From: JAYEMH01 sp034717985 [NCBI: Candidatus Ratteibacteria bacterium] | Lineage (GTDB): Bacteria; CAZDME01; JAYEMH01 | NCBI GenBank assembly: GCA_034717985.1 | Contig: JAYEMH010000005.1 | Coordinates: 1-52,660 of the forward strand | Reading direction: 5' to 3' | Length of the DNA: 52,660 bases | In this document: in pieces, positions 6,562-30,100 of the stretch | Numbering within the stretch: the stretch's first letter is position 1 | How the letters are laid out: each line of letters opens with the position of its first letter | Notes under the pieces: model-generated | The model's input: only the letters and a program-made list of their open reading frames with translations | Told to the model about the DNA's origin: nothing | Databases searched by the model: none | Translations under genes and position numbers: made by a program

Positions 6562-7590
6562 CTAAAACTCCAATTTTTCTACGGCCTTATCTATATGCTC
6601 ATCGGCAAGATGTGAATATATCATCGTTGTCTCTATATCTGCATGCCCCATCAGCTTCTTTACCGTAGGTAAATCCACCCCTTTCATAACCAGATGACTG
6701 GCAAAGGTATGGCGAAGGGTATGTAGCTTTGTAACATCCGGGAAACCAGAACGTTTAGTCAATCGCATAAGCCTTTTTCTTAATCGGTTATTCTCGATGG
6801 GATTCCCTTTGCCATCGTGAAATACTAAATTGCCTTTTTTGTTTTTCTCCTTCTGCTTTTTGAGAAGGTTAAATAATCCGTTGTTTAAAGGTATTTGTCT
6901 TTCATCCGTTTTAGGACTCCAGCCCTTCTTAACGGCTATTTTGATTTTTCTTCTATTTAAGTCTATATCTGTCCACTCAAGGTTTTGCAATTCACTTTTT
7001 CTCATCCCGGTATTTAAGAAAGTATAAAATATTGGATATTCCCATTCATTACAATTCTCTAATAAGATTTTACATTCTTCCTCTGAAAGAAATCTTGGGG
7101 CAATATGGTTTGTAATCTTTAACATTTTGACACTTTCGGTGGGATTTTCTTTCGTATAGCCCCAGGTTTTGGCCAGATTAAACACTGCCCGCAAGGTCTG
7201 CAACTCCATATTTATAGTTTTGTTTTGTGCCCTCTGGTCAAAACGAAATTTTTTATAATCTTCAAATGTTTTAGGGTTAAGATGGGATATCTTGGCAATA
7301 AAAGGGTGATGGGCTAAAAATCTCTTAAAATTATCTACAATAGCCCGGTATCTTTTTTGCGTGGAGGGGGTATGATTAGTTTGTGAATAAGAGAAGAAAT
7401 CGCTGAATAACTTATTTAGATTTTCGTCTTTTTTTTCAAAACCTGCTTCACCTTTGGCAATTTTAACTTCTACATCTTTTAATGCCAATTCAGCGATTTT
7501 TTTTGAAGCGCCTATTATTTTTCTGATTCGCCTACCGTTTATCCGGAAGTCAATAAAATACTTCCCATTCTTTTTCCGAAGAGTTGCCAC
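6562..7590 (-). CDS. Tyrosine recombinase/integrase of the element
   Basis: 342 residues. Residues 1-50 form an arm-binding-like domain (MATLRKKNGKYFIDFRI), about 60-155 the SAM-like core-binding domain, and about 165-340 the catalytic domain. Catalytic residues are R197 (NTGMRKSEL), probably K227, H290 and R293 (LHTLRHTF), H316 (LMGH) and the nucleophile Y325 (TMIYSHL), so the enzyme looks intact. GTG start with GAGG upstream. It lies next to the intact tRNA-Ser and presumably catalyses exchange between the 20 bp tRNA-end sequences. The promoter at 7666-7694 and an arm-like site at 7635-7650 just upstream suggest autoregulation. Confidence 0.95.
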   Translation of the reverse strand: MATLRKKNGKYFIDFRINGRRIRKIIGASKKIAELALKDVEVKIAKGEAGFEKKDENLNKLFSDFFSYSQTNHTPSTQKRYRAIVDNFKRFLAHHPFIAKISHLNPKTFEDYKKFRFDQRAQNKTINMELQTLRAVFNLAKTWGYTKENPTESVKMLKITNHIAPRFLSEEECKILLENCNEWEYPIFYTFLNTGMRKSELQNLEWTDIDLNRRKIKIAVKKGWSPKTDERQIPLNNGLFNLLKKQKEKNKKGNLVFHDGKGNPIENNRLRKRLMRLTKRSGFPDVTKLHTLRHTFASHLVMKGVDLPTVKKLMGHADIETTMIYSHLADEHIDKAVEKLEF

Positions 7591-7724: not shown

Positions 7725-7744
7725 TGGCGGAGAGGGAGGGATTC
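7725..7744. repeat. tRNA-side attachment-site copy
   Basis: Second copy of the 20 bp repeat also found at 108-127. It comprises the CCA end, discriminator, 3' acceptor strand and part of the T arm of tRNA-Ser(CGA), so integration restores a functional tRNA. Confidence 0.9.
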
Positions 7745-7813
7745 GAACCCCCGTGACTTTTCAGTCAAGACGATTTCGAGTCGTCCCCGTTATGACCACT
7801 TCGGTACCTCTCC
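7725..7813 (-). tRNA. tRNA-Ser (anticodon CGA)
   Basis: 89 nt including an encoded CCA. The acceptor stem is GGAGAGG/CCTCTCC, the anticodon stem GACGA/TCGTC encloses loop CTCGAAA (anticodon CGA, reads UCG), a long variable arm (TGACT/AGTCA) is present as required for class II tRNA-Ser, and the T arm has GGTTCGAATCC. It is the integration target of the element to its left. Confidence 0.95.
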
Positions 7814-22233: not shown

Positions 22234-22947
22234 TCAGCGCTTTAATCCTGTAAACCTCGTTAGAGAATCCCTTTTGCCTCTGTCACTTCTTTCCAGATAC
22301 TTTTGCGCATCATTGTTTCCCTTAACATCCTTCTCTGACGGGGTAAATCCTGTCCGAAATTCTTTTTTTGGTCTAAACCTTTCGCGGCCCGGGTCAAATA
22401 GATTCTTTTTCGCCCTCAGGCGAAGTTTTGGTGCTGTCCCTTCCCGAGTAGGCGGTGCTTTTACGAACTCCCGGCCATTTTTGGCAAATTCTTTTACTTT
22501 AGCAAATAATAATTCTTTGAGTTCTCTTCTCTTTTCGGCCGTTTTGATTTTTTGAGTTATCTTTTTCACTATTTTTATACTGGCAGATACGGTCTTTTTT
22601 CCAATTTTGCTTTCGGCCCATCCCCTTAGCTTCTCCATATCCGCCTTAAACGCCGATAAATCAAAATCAGGTTTAGGAAAATTGTTGAAAAGGCGGGTTC
22701 CCCGGGCCGGGGGGGTAACCGGGCCCGAGGGTTTGGGGATAAAGGGGTTAAATTGGGCTTTAGCGTTGGGGATATGGGCGCGGGCAAAAACTTTCTCGTT
22801 TATCTCTCTAAAATAGATTCTTTGGTCAAGGGTTTGCTTTATGTTTTTAAATGAATTGGGTATGTTTATACCCCAGGCAGCATTGGATTGAAACAAAACT
22901 CCAATTATAATAATAGATATGAATAACTTTTTCTTACTTCTTTTCAT
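22234..22947 (-). CDS. Secreted basic protein downstream of a c-di-GMP riboswitch (unknown function)
   Basis: Not recognised. 237 residues from the ATG at 22947 (MKRSKKKLFISIIIIGV); further upstream codons lack a better site. A clear signal peptide is followed by proline-rich FNPFIPKPSGPVTPPARG, a central helical segment and a very basic C-terminal half rich in K, R and F. It overlaps the preceding small gene by 14 bp and ends at a strong terminator. The charge and export suggest binding to polyanions (cell surface, polysaccharide or DNA), consistent with c-di-GMP-linked surface attachment. Inference. Confidence 0.75.
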   Translation of the reverse strand: MKRSKKKLFISIIIIGVLFQSNAAWGINIPNSFKNIKQTLDQRIYFREINEKVFARAHIPNAKAQFNPFIPKPSGPVTPPARGTRLFNNFPKPDFDLSAFKADMEKLRGWAESKIGKKTVSASIKIVKKITQKIKTAEKRRELKELLFAKVKEFAKNGREFVKAPPTREGTAPKLRLRAKKNLFDPGRERFRPKKEFRTGFTPSEKDVKGNNDAQKYLERSDRGKRDSLTRFTGLKR

Positions 22948-23170
22948 TCCCAACACCACTTTGTTTAATTACCAACCCCGGCTTGACAATGTGGGCAATA
23001 GATGTATGCTTTCCGGCCTTTTTCAAAACAAGAAACTCAGTAAAGGGTGGAGCGGAACTAACAAACATCAAGCAGAGGAAAAAAGCGCTTCCTTTGAGCA
23101 ATGCCTGGTTGATACACCTGTCAGCCGAACGACACAGGGTAATTACCGCTTTCTGCCTCTCGCTCAACAT
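22934..23170 (-). CDS. Small membrane-associated protein, first gene after riboswitch 1
   Basis: Not recognised. 78 residues starting MLSERQKAVITLC at ATG 23170, with AAGGAG nearby upstream. One hydrophobic stretch, ALLKGSAFFLCLMFVSSAPPF (about 23-43), may be an anchor. It follows the riboswitch 1 terminator and overlaps the next gene, so it is the first cistron of that c-di-GMP-controlled unit. It could be a leader peptide or a chaperone for the exported partner. Confidence 0.55.
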   Translation of the reverse strand: MLSERQKAVITLCRSADRCINQALLKGSAFFLCLMFVSSAPPFTEFLVLKKAGKHTSIAHIVKPGLVIKQSGVGNEKK

Positions 23171-23217: not shown

Positions 23218-23265
23218 AAAAAAGCCGAACTCCCAAAGTTTCTTTATCCTCCGGCAGCCCGGCTA
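23218..23265 (-). terminator. Expression-platform terminator of riboswitch 1
   Basis: On the minus strand AGCCGGGCT, the 3' side of the aptamer, can pair with AGTTCGGCT (9 bp with two G-U pairs), followed by TTTTTTG. Because the terminator uses aptamer bases, folding of the aptamer should prevent it: ligand binding would turn expression on. Confidence 0.65.
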
Positions 23266-23361
23266 TCCTTCGATAAACTCAGGATCCGTGGCTTTGCTTG
23301 CCCTGAACCCTACGTTGGTTCAGGGCGTCCCTGCCTTACGGCAGGTTTGCCTTTTTCGGGA
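23249..23361 (-). promoter_or_regulatory. c-di-GMP-I (GEMM) riboswitch 1, with palindrome insertion
   Basis: On the minus strand GGCAAACCTGCC, GNRA loop GTAA, GGCAGGGACG, then a roughly 29 nt hairpin insertion (built on CCTGAACC/GGGTTCAGG), then CAAAGCCACGGA, P3, and GGATAGCCGGGCTGCCG. The G before CAAA (position 20 in Vc2 numbering) and the middle A of CAAAG (A47) are kept, which favours c-di-GMP over cGAMP. The insertion splits the conserved GGGACGCAAAGCC core. It lies between the 756-residue protein's stop and the small gene, and no separate promoter is evident. Confidence 0.8.
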
Positions 23362-23385
23362 TTTTCTCACCCTCGAAAAACCCTG

Positions 23386-25656
23386 CTAACGAGACTTTAT
23401 CGGGTTGAAAATGCTGCGTTGAGACTCTTTCGGCTTATATCCTCCAGAATAACCACCATTCCTGGAAGATTTCTTAACTGCGACAGGGATGCTGCTTCGT
23501 ATAGTTGTGCTTGGCAGCTTAATTTTATTACCTCCGCGCCTTCTCACAGCTTTCTTCTTTATAGCAAAGGCATCTGCCGGAATGGGTCCAAGCCTCTCCA
23601 TCCGTATTCCCCTCGCCGCTTCTTTCTGAGCACGTCTCTTTTTATACTCTTTTTTTCTTGCTTCTTTCTTGGCCGCGTTCTCCGCTTGTTCCTTTGCTCG
23701 TCTTTTTTCTATCTTTTCCATCCGTGCTTTTCTTGCCGCTTCTCTCTTGGCCAGCAATTCAGCGCGTCTCTTTTCTCGCTCTTCTCTTTTCGCTTTCATC
23801 TCCGCTTCTTTCTTGGCCGCGTTCTCCGCTTGTTCCTTTGCTCGTCTTTTTTCTATCTTTTCCATCCGCGCTTTTCTTGCCGCTTCTACCTTGGCCTTTC
23901 TCTCAGCCCGCAATTCAGCGCGTCTCTTTTCTCGCTCTTCTCTTTTCGCTTCCATCTCCGCCCGATAAGCAGCAAGTTTTTCCTTATGTTTTTCTATCCT
24001 GGCTCTAAAAGCCGCTCTTCTTGCTTCTTTCCTGCCCTTTCTCTCCTCCTGAGCAGCAGCAATTTTCTCTTTACGCTCTTTCCTTCTCGCTTCCATTTCC
24101 GCCCGATGAGCGGCAATCTCGGCCTGATAAAGAGTGTTCTTCTCTTTGTGCTCTCCTCTTTCGACCTCTCTTTCAGCCCGATCTACCGTATGTTTCTCCT
24201 TAAGCTCCGCAATTTTCGCTTCCATCTCCGCCCGATAAGCAGCAAGTTTTTCCTTATGTTTTTCTATCCTGGCTTTAAAAGCCGCTCTTCTTGCCTCTTT
24301 CCTGGCCTTTCTCTCAGCTCGCATTGATGTATATTTCTCTTTAAGCTCTTCTTTTTTCGTTTTTATTACCTCTTTCGCAGTTTCCTTAGTGTCCCAGATG
24401 GACCCCTGCTTTTCCTCGATGGTGTCGAGGTCGTTTGCGATCGTGCTGGTGTCAACCGTTGCTGGCGTTGTAGTGTTACCAATGACAATCTCTTCTCTTG
24501 CCTCGCCTCCAATGACAATCTCTTCCCTTGGATTACCACCTATTTCCACTGCTTCCTTATCTGTTACGATGGTTTCAGGTTGAGTGTTTATATTAACCAG
24601 ATAATTCTTTGCTATCTGCAGCTTCTCTATGTTAGAAGGATCCGATTCTCTTTCCATCTGCCTTTCTATGGTGCCAATCATTCCTTGTATGCTTTTTAGA
24701 TAGTCATCCTCTGCCTCGGGAGTGATAACTGTTGTCCCTGCTGGATTCAGGACAGTAATTTCTCCGGTTACAAGGTCTAAGGTGCTTATTCCAAATCCTC
24801 CCGAAGCTCCACTTTCTTCTGTCTGAAGTTTATCGTCCGTGGCTATAGTTGCTCTTTTAGCTACTGCAACTCCACTAGGGAGTTCATCTAAAGTAACTAT
24901 ATCCATTTCCGGTAGTACTGTTCCCGGCTCTTCTGGAGCTGGCTCGTCCGCCCCACCAATGACAATCTCTTCTCTTGCCTTACCACCAATGACAATCTCG
25001 TCCCTTGGCTCGCCACCAATGACAATCTCTTCTCTTGGTTCACCACCAATGACGATTTCTTCCTCCCTCGGTGTAAGGAGTTCATCCTCGGGGTCGGTAA
25101 CCGTGGCATCAGTGTCCCAGCTGGACCCCTGCTTTTCCTCGATGGTGTCGAGGTTGTTTGCGATCGTGCTGGTGTCAACCGTTGCTGGCGTTGTAGTGTT
25201 ACCAATGACAATCTCTTCTCTTGGCTCGCCTCCAATGACATACGCTTCCGCTGGCACTGTAGCCGCATCTTCAGATGTATATTTCTCTTTAAGCTCTTCT
25301 TTTTTCGTTTTCCTCTCCGCCCGAGCTGCAACCTTCTCTACATGTCTTCCTTTTGTCTCTTTGAAATCGGCTCGAGTATCCAATGGTTGCTCTTTTGCCA
25401 AATCGTCATTTTCTTTCCATGTGTAATAAAGCTCTATCTCTTTCTCTGTCAACGGTGTAATCACCTGGGCGTAGAACATACCCGGCTCATGAATGCCCCG
25501 TCCGGCATCCCGCCAACATAATTGTCCATTTTCAACAATTACTCGAGACCAATCAGGCTTCAGGGTATCATCGGCAAATGCCTTATCAACTCCCAGAATT
25601 AAAAACATCCCTGCTACCACTAATACTATTAATCCTGCTTTACTTATTCTAATCAT
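23386..25656 (-). CDS. Large exported repeat protein controlled by c-di-GMP riboswitch 2
   Basis: Not a recognised family. 756 residues from ATG 25656 (AGGAAGGG upstream). Signal peptide MIRISKAGLIVLVVAGMFLI...AFA. A first zone has 10-residue repeats GGEPREEIVI (about eight variants) and a duplicated NTTTPATVDTSTIAN/DTIEEKQGS module. Then comes a region of about 300 residues extremely rich in E, K, R and A (EKHKEKLAAYRAEMEAK, KARMEKIEKRRAKEQAENAA), predicted to be a long charged coiled coil or single alpha-helix. The C-terminal tail is basic and glycine-rich (RNGGYSGGYKPKES). The build suggests a fibrous or surface protein such as an adhesin or matrix scaffold; c-di-GMP control fits a biofilm role. 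Function is inference. Confidence 0.85.
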   Translation of the reverse strand: MIRISKAGLIVLVVAGMFLILGVDKAFADDTLKPDWSRVIVENGQLCWRDAGRGIHEPGMFYAQVITPLTEKEIELYYTWKENDDLAKEQPLDTRADFKETKGRHVEKVAARAERKTKKEELKEKYTSEDAATVPAEAYVIGGEPREEIVIGNTTTPATVDTSTIANNLDTIEEKQGSSWDTDATVTDPEDELLTPREEEIVIGGEPREEIVIGGEPRDEIVIGGKAREEIVIGGADEPAPEEPGTVLPEMDIVTLDELPSGVAVAKRATIATDDKLQTEESGASGGFGISTLDLVTGEITVLNPAGTTVITPEAEDDYLKSIQGMIGTIERQMERESDPSNIEKLQIAKNYLVNINTQPETIVTDKEAVEIGGNPREEIVIGGEAREEIVIGNTTTPATVDTSTIANDLDTIEEKQGSIWDTKETAKEVIKTKKEELKEKYTSMRAERKARKEARRAAFKARIEKHKEKLAAYRAEMEAKIAELKEKHTVDRAEREVERGEHKEKNTLYQAEIAAHRAEMEARRKERKEKIAAAQEERKGRKEARRAAFRARIEKHKEKLAAYRAEMEAKREEREKRRAELRAERKAKVEAARKARMEKIEKRRAKEQAENAAKKEAEMKAKREEREKRRAELLAKREAARKARMEKIEKRRAKEQAENAAKKEARKKEYKKRRAQKEAARGIRMERLGPIPADAFAIKKKAVRRRGGNKIKLPSTTIRSSIPVAVKKSSRNGGYSGGYKPKESQRSIFNPIKSR

Positions 25657-25734
25657 TTTATTTCCCTTCCTTTTTTTCCGCTTTGGTTGTTTTGCCTCTT
25701 TGTTTATCATTTCCATTTCACCTACATCCTCACT

Positions 25735-25772
25735 AATAAAAAATCCGGATTGCCTTCCCTTCGGCAACCCGG
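25735..25772 (-). terminator. Expression-platform terminator of riboswitch 2
   Basis: On the minus strand CCGGGTTGCC pairs with GGCAATCCGG (9 of 10) followed by ATTTTTTATT. The 5' arm is the conserved 3' end of the aptamer, so terminator and aptamer exclude each other, as in a transcriptional ON switch. Confidence 0.75.
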
Positions 25773-25841
25773 CTTTCCTTCGATAAACTCAGGATCCGTG
25801 GCTTTGCGACTCCACCTTGCGATGAATTAGCCTTTTTCGGT
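25759..25841 (-). promoter_or_regulatory. c-di-GMP-I (GEMM) riboswitch 2
   Basis: On the minus strand AAAAAGGCTAATTCATC, GNRA loop GCAA, GGTGGAGTCGCAAAGCCACGG, a P3 closed by CCTGAGTTTATCGAAGG, then AAAGCCGGGTTGCCG. The CGCAAAGCCACGG core and the GCCGGGTTGCCG end match the GEMM-I consensus. The base before C-U-A-A is G, as in c-di-GMP-binding members. A consensus promoter precedes it by about 20 bp and the large exported repeat protein follows. Confidence 0.88.
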
Positions 25842-25860
25842 CTTTTTCGATTTCATTGTA

Positions 25861-25889
25861 AGTATAGCATAAAATCTGCCCTTTGTCAA
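25861..25889 (-). promoter_or_regulatory. Promoter of riboswitch 2 transcript
   Basis: On the minus strand TTGACA (25884-25889), 17 bp spacer, TATACT (25861-25866). The predicted start, near 25854, is just before the aptamer. Confidence 0.75.
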
Positions 25890-28551: not shown

Positions 28552-28857
28552 CTATTCTCTGCCAAGCTTGCCTAACTTAAAATGGATATCGCGAATAAGC
28601 GGCTCTTCGGCTTCCTGATTGAGCTTATCCAAAATATCTATTTTGTGATGGAGTGTCAATTGATAAACCCAATTGGAGTTATCCACTTGAACAAAAAGCT
28701 TTTTCCTTTTTATGCCCAACGGCTGGGCGTGCCTGGCAATCTGTTCGCCCACCAGCTTGTCCCATGCCCCCAAAACCCGGCCTTCTTTAAGCCTTTTTTC
28801 CATCCCCAGATTCTCAAAGGCTCTCTTTAAGACTTTATCAATTTTTTCTACACTCAT
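28552..28857 (-). CDS. dciA: DciA-like (DUF721) protein
   Basis: 101 residues. The conserved KH-like DUF721 pattern is visible: VLGAWDKLVGEQIARHAQPLGIKRKKLFVQVDNSNWVYQLTLHHKIDILDKLN. DciA loads the replicative helicase DnaB in bacteria that lack DnaC/DnaI. The position between dnaN and gyrB in the dnaA cluster is typical. ATG start. Confidence 0.88.
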   Translation of the reverse strand: MSVEKIDKVLKRAFENLGMEKRLKEGRVLGAWDKLVGEQIARHAQPLGIKRKKLFVQVDNSNWVYQLTLHHKIDILDKLNQEAEEPLIRDIHFKLGKLGRE

Positions 28858-28863
28858 TTTTTT

Positions 28864-28972
28864 ATCTCGTATATAGTATCTGGTGTCTGGTATCTCGTAT
28901 TTAGTATTTCGTATCTCGTCCGAATTCTGATTCGTTTTTTGCGATTCACGAGATACGAACGACGAGATACGG
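28864..28972. repeat. GTATCTCG-type low-complexity palindrome
   Basis: Tandem variants of GTATCTCGTATTTAG face the complement CACGAGATACGA across a short loop, forming a long imperfect hairpin between dciA and dnaN. The heptamer array inside serS (ATTCCGT) has a similar composition. Confidence 0.7.
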
Positions 28973-28975
28973 CCT

Positions 28976-30100
28976 TTAGTTGAGCCGCATGGGCATAATT
29001 ACACAGATATAGTTTTCGTTCTTATCTGCGGGCTGAATCACCCCCGGGCTTAAAGAATTGCTTAAACCTATATTAATTTCTTCGCTTTCTATATTCTTTA
29101 AAACATCAATTAAAAAATGCGGGTTAAAAGCGATGTTTAACTCTTCTCCTTTATATACCGTATCCATTTCCTCTTTAGACTCCCCCACCTCAGGAGTGTT
29201 AGCGGAAATGATTAATTTTCCCTGTGGGGTAAAACTAAATTTGACTGAATTGGCTTTTTCGCTGGTAAGAATAGCCGCTCTTCGAGTAGCGGTCAGGAAT
29301 TCCTCCCGCTTAATTTTTATCCTTTTCTCTATTTCCTTGGGGATAACTTGTTCATAATTTGGGTATGTCCCTTCAATTAAGCGGCTGGTTAGGTTAATCT
29401 CGCCTAACCCAAGCGAAGATGGTATTTTACAAGAAACCTGATTCTCTCCAACCTTTAAAACCACTTCACTTTTTTCATCCTGTAGAATCTGTGATAACTC
29501 CTGAATGGCTTTGATAGGGATAATAAAACTAAAGGATACACCTTTAGTCTCTTTAAGCTTTACCGAAACACAAGATAGTCTTCTTCCATCGGTTCCTACC
29601 ACATTTAAAATTCCTTTATCAATTTTAAAATAAAGACCGTTTAAAACATAGCGGGTTTCGTTATAAGAAACAGAAAAATTGGTTTTTTTTATAATTGTTT
29701 TAAGAGTGTTCTGGGATAAAGAAATTTCTTTATCTTCTTTAAAAATAGGAATTTTAGGAAATTCTTCCTTGGGTAAACCGAATATTTTAAAAAAGCTTTT
29801 ACTACACTTGATTTCAATTTGATTTTTGATAACTTCTAACGAAATTTCCTTATCAGGTAATTCCTTTATGATATCCCCTGTCTTTTTTACCGGAATGGAT
29901 ATACTGCCCGGCCTTATGACCTCAGCGGAAATAGTTGTGTTTATCCCTAATTCAAGGTCTGTGCAGAATAAATTAAGGCGGTTTTTTTGTGTATCAAGTA
30001 AAAGATTGGATAGAATTGGTAAGGTGCTTTTGGGAGATACGGCATTTTGGACAGTTTGGATTCCTTTTAAAATACTTTCTTTTTCCACTTTAACTTTCAT
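28976..30100 (-). CDS. dnaN: DNA polymerase III beta subunit (sliding clamp)
   Basis: 374 residues, standard clamp length, three repeats of the clamp fold. Recognisable segments are LPILSNLLLDT at the end of the first helix, ETRYVLNGLYFKI, TDGRRLSCV and the C-terminal PGVIQPADKNENYICVIMPMRL, which closes the protein-binding pocket. Dimer around DNA, tethering polymerase III. Downstream of dnaA in the same direction. Confidence 0.97.
   Translation of the reverse strand: MKVKVEKESILKGIQTVQNAVSPKSTLPILSNLLLDTQKNRLNLFCTDLELGINTTISAEVIRPGSISIPVKKTGDIIKELPDKEISLEVIKNQIEIKCSKSFFKIFGLPKEEFPKIPIFKEDKEISLSQNTLKTIIKKTNFSVSYNETRYVLNGLYFKIDKGILNVVGTDGRRLSCVSVKLKETKGVSFSFIIPIKAIQELSQILQDEKSEVVLKVGENQVSCKIPSSLGLGEINLTSRLIEGTYPNYEQVIPKEIEKRIKIKREEFLTATRRAAILTSEKANSVKFSFTPQGKLIISANTPEVGESKEEMDTVYKGEELNIAFNPHFLIDVLKNIESEEINIGLSNSLSPGVIQPADKNENYICVIMPMRLN

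What the first reader, a model, noticed from the sequence alone, without database searches (positions are those of the whole stretch)
23249..25889. Two c-di-GMP riboswitches in tandem loci controlling exported repeat proteins
Each aptamer overlaps the 5' arm of an intrinsic terminator, predicting transcriptional ON switches. The controlled genes are a 756-residue secreted coiled-coil protein and a small-protein/basic secreted-protein pair. Together this looks like a c-di-GMP-induced surface or matrix system unlike known adhesin operons.
Basis: partly seen in the sequence, partly recalled or inferred. Interest (0 to 1): 0.8.

Follow-up and report, generated by a model that had tools for sequence, protein, structure and literature searches.

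The report
Two c-di-GMP ON riboswitches in series
In an uncultured Omnitrophota-like bacterium, two RNA sensors for the signal c-di-GMP appear to sit one after the other on a single message, so that genes for exported proteins would be switched on step by step when the signal rises; related bacteria use the same type of sensor in front of giant genes.

Summary
Both RNAs pass Rfam's c-di-GMP-I thresholds (59.6 and 43.1 bits). A model built from 30 ON-type relatives, window excluded, scores them 70.3 and 52.4 bits; in 1.04 Mb of control DNA nothing but one training member exceeds 12.3. Each terminator's 5' arm is the aptamer's 3' strand: ON switches by anatomy, ligand-free RNA favouring the terminator by about 6 kcal/mol. 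G20, A47 and C92 predict c-di-GMP, despite Rfam's 'GGC' label for the first.

'Tandem loci' is better read as one operon: switch 1 has a near-perfect promoter; switch 2 starts 24 nt after gene A's stop without the promoter signal that 106 of 132 relatives have. Gene A would need one open gate, genes B and C two. Switch 2 carries a 29-nt hairpin insertion beside the pocket and may be impaired. Gene A's helix lacks coiled-coil periodicity. A, B and C have no convincing family match.

Survey: 35 of 135 sites are ON-type; 32 of 33 examined precede an ORF with an N-terminal hydrophobic segment, and 14 of 35 a family that includes giant ORFs.

The parts
25861..25889 (-). sigma-70 type promoter of switch 1: TTGACA-17-TATACT with TG before the -10
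   Evidence: 11 of 12 matches; score 11.5 against a shuffled mean of 7.7
25759..25841 (-). switch 1 (RS1): c-di-GMP-I class aptamer; GCAA tetraloop; G20, A47, C92 kept
   Evidence: 59.6 bits RF03167; 70.3 bits
25745..25772 (-). RS1 intrinsic terminator; its 5' arm is the aptamer's 3' strand
   Evidence: -19.7 kcal/mol, z -4.6
23386..25656 (-). gene A: 756-aa probably exported protein without convincing relatives; eight or nine IVIGG-type repeats, acidic first half, long E/A/K/R helix (residues 420-684), basic tail
   Evidence: SD GGAAGG before ATG read from sequence
23250..23361 (-). switch 2 (RS2): c-di-GMP-I aptamer 24 nt after the gene A stop; GUAA tetraloop; G20, A47, C92 kept
   Evidence: 43.1 bits RF01051; 52.4 bits
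23298..23326 (-). 29-nt hairpin insertion in RS2, here placed between GAC and GC of the P1b internal loop (10-bp stem; the exact ends are ambiguous by two bases)
   Evidence: sequence; fold; P1b-to-A47 spacing 33 nt against 4-5 nt in 128 of 131 parsed relatives
23223..23264 (-). RS2 intrinsic terminator; its 5' arm is the aptamer's 3' strand
   Evidence: -23.4 kcal/mol, z -4.9; not in the list, whose loop limit is 8
22934..23170 (-). gene B: 78-aa basic small protein (86 aa if read from TTG 23194), no family
   Evidence: SD AGGAGAGG read from sequence
22234..22947 (-). gene C: 237-aa basic, probably exported protein (pI 10.7 after a presumed signal peptide), no family; start overlaps gene B by 14 nt

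Best explanation
One operon, P-RS1-A-RS2-B-C, sits between gyrB and gyrA in an Omnitrophota-like genome, with two c-di-GMP-I ON switches in series. Without c-di-GMP each nascent aptamer is invaded by its terminator: the aptamer's 3' strand becomes the terminator's 5' arm, and transcription stops. With c-di-GMP the aptamer holds that strand and RNA polymerase reads on. RS1 gates gene A. RS2, lying between cistrons without its own promoter, gates B and C again, so A output follows f1 and B/C output f1 x f2: a steeper response and a lower ceiling for B and C. RS2's terminator also ends the gene A message at low signal. Shown by computation: aptamer class, key bases, mutually exclusive folds, a promoter signal for RS1 only, operon geometry. 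Inferred: c-di-GMP binding, readthrough, series coupling, and an exported surface role for A and C.
For: Class and background. Key bases: G20, G21-C46, A47, C92 kept in both (alignments; roles from passages of PMC9049102); A47 is A in 135 of 135 relatives. A GNRA loop without the 11-nt receptor is normal here: 78 of 80 relatives with a GNRA loop other than GAAA lack it. Mutually exclusive folds: terminator favoured by 5.9 and 6.1 kcal/mol at full length, the aptamer fold equal to the minimum or within 0.8 at each shorter length tried. Relatives: 35 of 135 have the same overlap, including two with compensating arms (G008:C34, G012:C82). Series: 24-nt gap; RS2 promoter score 7.0 against 11.5 for RS1 and at least 9 in 106 of 132 relatives; one parallel case, G019:C17, has switch, exported gene, 23 nt, switch, exported gene and a promoter score of 6.0 before the second, but the OFF layout. 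RS1 and RS2 share 44 of 47 bases in their 3' halves, so probably arose by local duplication.
Against: RS2's 29-nt insertion stands where 128 of 131 parsed relatives have 4-5 nt, and could break the aptamer; only one relative (G031:C12:18262) has a true insertion at the same spot. The promoter scan is sigma-70 consensus only. gyrB ends 54 nt upstream of the RS1 promoter with no terminator listed between, so it may also feed the operon. Series precedent is 1 of 135. The RF03167 score of RS1 is only 0.6 bits above threshold. Eight of the 50 genomes searched have no c-di-GMP-I match, among them three of the highest in GyrB identity to the window (G001, G005, G011). Whether this organism makes c-di-GMP could not be tested (no genome held). 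The proteins have no homologue that supports a function.
Confidence: 0.6

Rival explanations
1. RS1 works, but RS2 is a decaying duplicate: the hairpin insertion spoils the pocket and its terminator is constitutive, ending the gene A message; B and C are barely expressed.
For: 29-nt insertion against an otherwise near-invariant spacing; RS2 scores lower than RS1 with both models; the 44 of 47 identity of the 3' halves fits a recent duplication.
Against: The pocket bases, the GNRA loop and the terminator are intact; one parse puts the insertion in the internal loop, above the G21-C46 pair; B has a strong SD and overlaps C, with open frames kept; a relative carries an insertion at the same spot in an ON-type switch before a 706-aa ORF with an N-terminal hydrophobic segment.
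Confidence: 0.25
2. Two independent loci: RS2 has its own promoter of a type the scan misses, inside the end of gene A.
For: Most relatives have a promoter signal just upstream of each switch; promoters of other sigma factors are not covered by the scan; 26 of 132 relatives score below 9 as well.
Against: RS1 in the same locus and 106 of 132 relatives show a recognisable sigma-70 type promoter; RS2 scores 7.0, near its shuffled mean of 6.6; one search lists no - strand promoter between 25861 and 22166.
Confidence: 0.2
3. The aptamers answer another dinucleotide (cGAMP, or the ligand of the 'GGC' variant).
For: RF03167 (c-di-GMP-I-GGC) is the best Rfam label for RS1 and for 18 of 20 switches scanned before the giant-gene family.
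Against: At the column where the RF03167 consensus has G, the window and 135 of 135 relatives have A; position 20 is G, whereas a change at one pocket position marks cGAMP-sensing variants (passages of PMC9481103; that it is G20A is recalled).
Confidence: 0.1

Closest known systems
pilM cGAMP riboswitch of Geobacter metallireducens (GEMM-Ib)
   Same: Homologous aptamer class; aptamer and terminator mutually exclusive; transcriptional ON switch (passages of PMC9262584).
   Different: Position 20 here is G, predicting c-di-GMP; target genes unrelated; here two switches in one operon.
Tandem c-di-GMP-I riboswitches (347 doublets, 12 triplets; Bacillus thuringiensis Bc3-5)
   Same: Several identical-ligand switches in cis giving a more digital response (passages of PMC9481103; abstract start of PMC4759541; passages of PMC12452182).
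   Different: Those stand together in one leader; here a whole gene lies between, so the first gene gets one gate and the later genes two.
Desulfobacca acetoxidans array of seven riboswitches in 7 kb
   Same: Several c-di-GMP-I switches separated by ORFs (PMC9481103 passages).
   Different: Described there as three independent logic devices with AdoCbl partners; no intercistronic gate without a promoter is described in the passages seen.

Membership tests
c-di-GMP-I riboswitch (RF01051/RF03167 clan) | covariance-model score above the gathering cut-off | tested here: met
   59.6 vs 59 (RF03167) and 43.1 vs 35 (RF01051); own model 70.3 and 52.4 bits
c-di-GMP-I riboswitch (RF01051/RF03167 clan) | pocket bases G20, G21-C46, A47, C92 | tested here: met
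   alignments, mapped by eye; A47 column of relatives; roles from PMC9049102 passages
c-di-GMP-I riboswitch (RF01051/RF03167 clan) | GNRA loop on P1b, with or without receptor in the other arm | tested here: met
   GCAA and GUAA; receptor absent as in 78 of 80 relatives with a GNRA loop other than GAAA
c-di-GMP-I riboswitch (RF01051/RF03167 clan) | uninterrupted P1b-to-A47 junction | tested here: inconclusive
   RS1 met (parsed spacing 3); RS2 not met (33 nt against 4-5 in 128 of 131), though one relative has an insertion there too
c-di-GMP-I riboswitch (RF01051/RF03167 clan) | binds c-di-GMP | not testable with these tools
   needs in-line probing or ITC
c-di-GMP-I-GGC variant (RF03167) | G in place of A47 | tested here: not met
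   RS1 has A at that column; so do 135 of 135 relatives. That 'GGC' names positions 20/47/92 is my inference from the consensus.
transcriptional ON riboswitch | aptamer and terminator mutually exclusive | tested here: met
   overlap 14-19 and 15 nt; energies
transcriptional ON riboswitch | ligand-dependent readthrough | not testable with these tools
   needs transcription assays
tandem riboswitch (shared leader) | contiguous aptamers in one intergenic region | tested here: not met
   a 756-codon gene lies between RS1 and RS2
known adhesin or matrix protein family (genes A, C) | Pfam, NCBIfam, PDB or phylum homologue | tested here: not met
   none for A and C in Pfam and NCBIfam, none for A in the PDB (C not tried); 0 of 285 genomes for the A N-terminus and for C. 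A has one PHROG hit (tail tape measure, E 9.6e-5, residues 193-680, about half of it the low-complexity helix), which I take as compositional.

The most novel reading that the evidence does not exclude
The window's switches belong to a group-wide ON-type c-di-GMP-I regulon of the Omnitrophota that turns on large exported proteins, among them giant ORFs of ten to over fifty thousand residues thought to act in attachment or predation; in this genome the switches are wired in series, so one second messenger releases a first exported protein and, at higher dose, a second set.
Probability: 0.4. Interest if true: 0.82.

Novelty: new variant of a known kind. Interest (0 to 1): 0.6.

Why it matters
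If true, one small molecule would control a graded, two-gate surface programme in an uncultured phylum, through a wiring (gate, gene, gate, genes) that differs from the tandem switches in the passages I read. The survey also gives a testable hypothesis for how some Omnitrophota giant ORFs are regulated. Their roles are called poorly understood in Seymour et al. 2023, which reports three-fold more giant-protein peptides in attached cells; a word search of its main text finds neither 'riboswitch' nor 'c-di-GMP'. The RNAs are short and can be tested in vitro without culturing the organism.

Tried and rejected
Coiled coil for gene A: power at period 3.5 is not above shuffles (563 of 2000 reach it for ILVMF, 984 of 2000 for ILVMFAY). 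At 3.6 the ILVMF signal is reached by 39 of 2000, the best of ten tests. Gene B as a member of the small RHH-like family found behind other c-di-GMP-I switches: hhalign probability 0.1%. The RS2 insertion as a copy of a dispersed repeat: single copy in the window with up to 3 mismatches, no exact match in 210 loci. Conserved position between gyrB and gyrA: only 1 of 54 gyrB loci has a strong R1 hit, and there it lies after gyrA. The permutation test of terminator arms (0 of 5000) is biased because the class was chosen by pairing; I do not lean on it. One of the 35 'overlap' calls (G031:C12:23013) is doubtful and was dropped from the model; so were four below 48 bits, leaving 30. First-gene calls left 15 of 35 ON-type loci empty; one search replaced them with a longest-ORF rule. 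AlphaFold of gene A is single-sequence (mean pLDDT 56.4, pTM 0.22): only the long helix is used.
Full report
OBSERVATION. cmscan finds two c-di-GMP-I class aptamers on the - strand at 25841-25759 and 23361-23250, the only riboswitches in the window at gathering thresholds (the other two hits are tRNAs). To test them against relatives I fetched 80 gyrB loci (GyrB identities of the best segment 54-63%; by my count 68 of 80 titles say Omnitrophota or Omnitrophica) and searched 50 of the genomes behind them with RF01051: 42 of 50 have a match, none of 14 control genomes does. The 8 without include three of the highest in GyrB identity (G001, G005, G011). Of the 142 listed hits above the cut-off I fetched and analysed 135; 7 were not fetched. 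A model (R1) built from 30 ON-type relatives scores the window's two sites at 70.3 and 52.4 bits; nothing else in the window exceeds 12.8. In 54 of the 80 gyrB loci (1.04 Mb) only a training member (L008) scores well, then 12.3 bits.

LIGAND. Rfam labels RS1 'c-di-GMP-I-GGC', by 0.6 bits over threshold. At the column where that model has G (read here as position 47), RS1, RS2 and 135 of 135 relatives have A. G20, G21-C46, A47 and C92, conserved or key residues according to PMC9049102 (passages), are kept in both. I therefore predict c-di-GMP; binding is not shown.

SWITCHING. The 5' arm of each terminator lies within the aptamer's 3' strand: 14 nt for RS1 (19 with weak flanking pairs) and 15 nt for RS2. 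Terminators fold at -19.7 and -23.4 kcal/mol, z -4.6 and -4.9, none of 200 shuffles as good. With the six P3 pairs next to the pocket enforced, the full-length RNA loses 5.9 (RS1) or 6.1 (RS2) kcal/mol, but at each shorter length tried the aptamer fold is the minimum or within 0.8 of it. So the decision would fall in the last few nucleotides. The pilM ON switch likewise has mutually exclusive aptamer and terminator (passages of PMC9262584). RS1's aptamer alone is not more stable than shuffles (z -0.7, 48 of 200 as good), RS2's is (z -5.1), largely through its inserted hairpin (the reason is my reading).

RELATIVES. Of 135 sites, 35 have the overlapping (ON) layout, 90 an independent terminator (probably OFF), 10 none (a simple finder of mine, with at least one doubtful call). 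ON-type sites come from 24 of the 40 genomes represented. For 33 ON-type sites examined (2 too short downstream), the longest ORF starting within 900 nt has an N-terminal hydrophobic segment in 32; 27 of the 33 ORFs reach 386 codons or more, many running off the fetched DNA. For the independent type it is 55 of 88 (2 too short); the 10 'none' were not examined.

SERIES. RS1 has TTGACA-17-TATACT with an extended -10. RS2 starts 24 nt after gene A's stop; its best promoter score is 7.0, shuffled mean 6.6. Among 132 relatives with enough upstream DNA (3 dropped), 106 score 9 or more (26 of 34 ON, 74 of 88 independent, 6 of 10 none). Among 15 relatives with an upstream stop within 60 nt, G019:C17 is the one with a score (6.0) as low as RS2's; it repeats the geometry with a 23-nt gap, but in the OFF layout. 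In the passages read, published tandem c-di-GMP-I switches stand together ahead of one gene or operon (PMC9481103; PMC12452182). A full-text search for c-di-GMP, riboswitch and intercistronic lists two papers, neither on this subject by title and abstract start. gyrB ends 54 nt before the RS1 promoter and one search lists no terminator between, so some transcription may enter from gyrB.

RS2 INSERTION. The spacing from P1b to A47 is 4 nt in 120 and 5 nt in 8 of 131 parsed relatives (4 of 135 not parsed); in RS2 it is 33. The extra 29 nt form a 10-bp hairpin. Parsed as an insertion between GAC and GC it leaves the pocket bases in place; whether the RNA still binds is open. G031:C12:18262, also ON-type, has an insertion at the same spot (my reading of its sequence) and stands before a 706-aa ORF with an N-terminal hydrophobic segment. 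RS1 and RS2 match at 44 of 47 positions from CAAAGCC on, and their shared 17-nt P3 tip has no exact match in 210 other loci: a local duplication is likely.

PROTEINS. Gene A: N-terminal hydrophobic segment, acidic residues 28-430 (pI 4.3), eight or nine IVIGG-type repeats, a modelled helix 420-684 (charged 57%, ILVMF 12%), basic tail. No 3.5-residue periodicity; i to i+4 acid-base pairs are mildly enriched (35 of 2000 shuffles reach the count), a weak hint of a single-alpha-helix rod. B is basic, C strongly basic (pI 10.7). None of the three matches Pfam or NCBIfam; A alone matches one PHROG, a phage tape-measure profile (E 9.6e-5), probably by composition; A has no PDB sequence match. The A N-terminus and C have no relative in 285 Omnitrophota genomes (the tool warns that an empty answer without a positive control shows nothing); B was not searched in genomes. 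An acidic-plus-basic surface assembly is speculation.

GIANT ORFS. Several ON-type switches precede one protein family whose frames run on: at least 19,916, 18,762, 13,294 and 12,627 codons, all still open at the end of the DNA read, in four of six stretches. A profile of its N-terminus (8 rows, all from behind ON-type switches, so biased) matches 74 of 285 genomes, with open frames up to 57,756 aa. Of 77 places listed I examined 70. R1 finds a switch in 23 of the 30 best (9 of the 23 are R1 training sites; 14 of the 21 others) and in 4 of 40 weaker ones (67.5, 50.3, 25.1 and 18.2 bits; some of these stretches are short). Rfam agrees for 20 of 20 scanned of the 23. Rfam scans of the 7 best loci without an R1 hit and of 33 of the 40 weaker ones find only L253, the 50.3-bit one. 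By regular expression 14 of 35 ON-type and 0 of 100 other sites precede the family. So the link is strong among close members and absent in most distant ones. Giant ORFs in Omnitrophota are known; a word search of the main text of Seymour et al. 2023 (PMC10066038, passages seen) finds no riboswitch and no c-di-GMP, and no paper in the library holds Omnitrophota or Omnitrophica with riboswitch. One paper holds 'giant protein', riboswitch and c-di-GMP, on Staphylococcus by its title. Subscription papers and preprints were not searched.

VERDICT. The RNAs are ordinary in class and ON in design; the series wiring and the insertion are the unusual parts; the group-wide context, above all the giant genes, is the more interesting result.

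Noticed in passing
L223-L252 (e.g. L234, L236, L228) and G045:C4, G274:C2, G146:C9: ON-type c-di-GMP-I switches stand before a family that includes giant ORFs (open frames up to 57,756 aa): 23 of the 30 best family matches, 4 of 40 weaker ones.
   Followed up: partly
G013:C5, G018:C15, G031:C9, G031:C98, G006:C132, G025:C6, G028:C19, G014:C81, G039:C28, G047:C66, G010:C5 (of 135 sites): c-di-GMP-I switches with an independent terminator precede IS200-like (Y1_Tnp) transposase-type genes at about 11 sites, judged by sequence pattern; two of two tested pass Pfam. A second messenger may restrain these genes (inference).
   Followed up: partly
e.g. L101, L109, L107; 15 of 135 sites: A conserved small protein (about 85-100 aa, ribbon-helix-helix-like by eye, motif DFLDKLGKDALFSTG) lies behind c-di-GMP-I switches, 14 of 15 with an independent terminator, in some followed by an overlapping exported-protein ORF; two tested have no Pfam family above cut-off.
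   Followed up: partly
L111 (G019:C17:8630-7936): Two near-identical OFF-layout switches flank an exported gene of about 146 codons, with 23 nt between its stop and the second switch: the only other series arrangement I found.
   Followed up: yes
window 6562-7590 and 7728-7813: Phage-type integrase gene beside a tRNA gene (probably Ser, by eye): possible integrated element.
   Followed up: no
window 28860-28975: Short repeats of the kind ATCTCGTAT with an inverted copy between the 101-aa ORF 28552-28857 and the ORF 28976-30100 (dnaN-like by eye).
   Followed up: no
G031:C12:18262-18402 (L119): ON-type switch with extra hairpins inserted at the same junction as RS2.
   Followed up: partly
Rfam RF03167 hits: window RS1 and L223-L248: RS1 and 18 of 20 switches scanned before the giant-gene family are best labelled 'GGC' by Rfam. 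RS1 carries A at that column, as do the 135 surveyed sites: the label may mislead in this phylum.
   Followed up: partly
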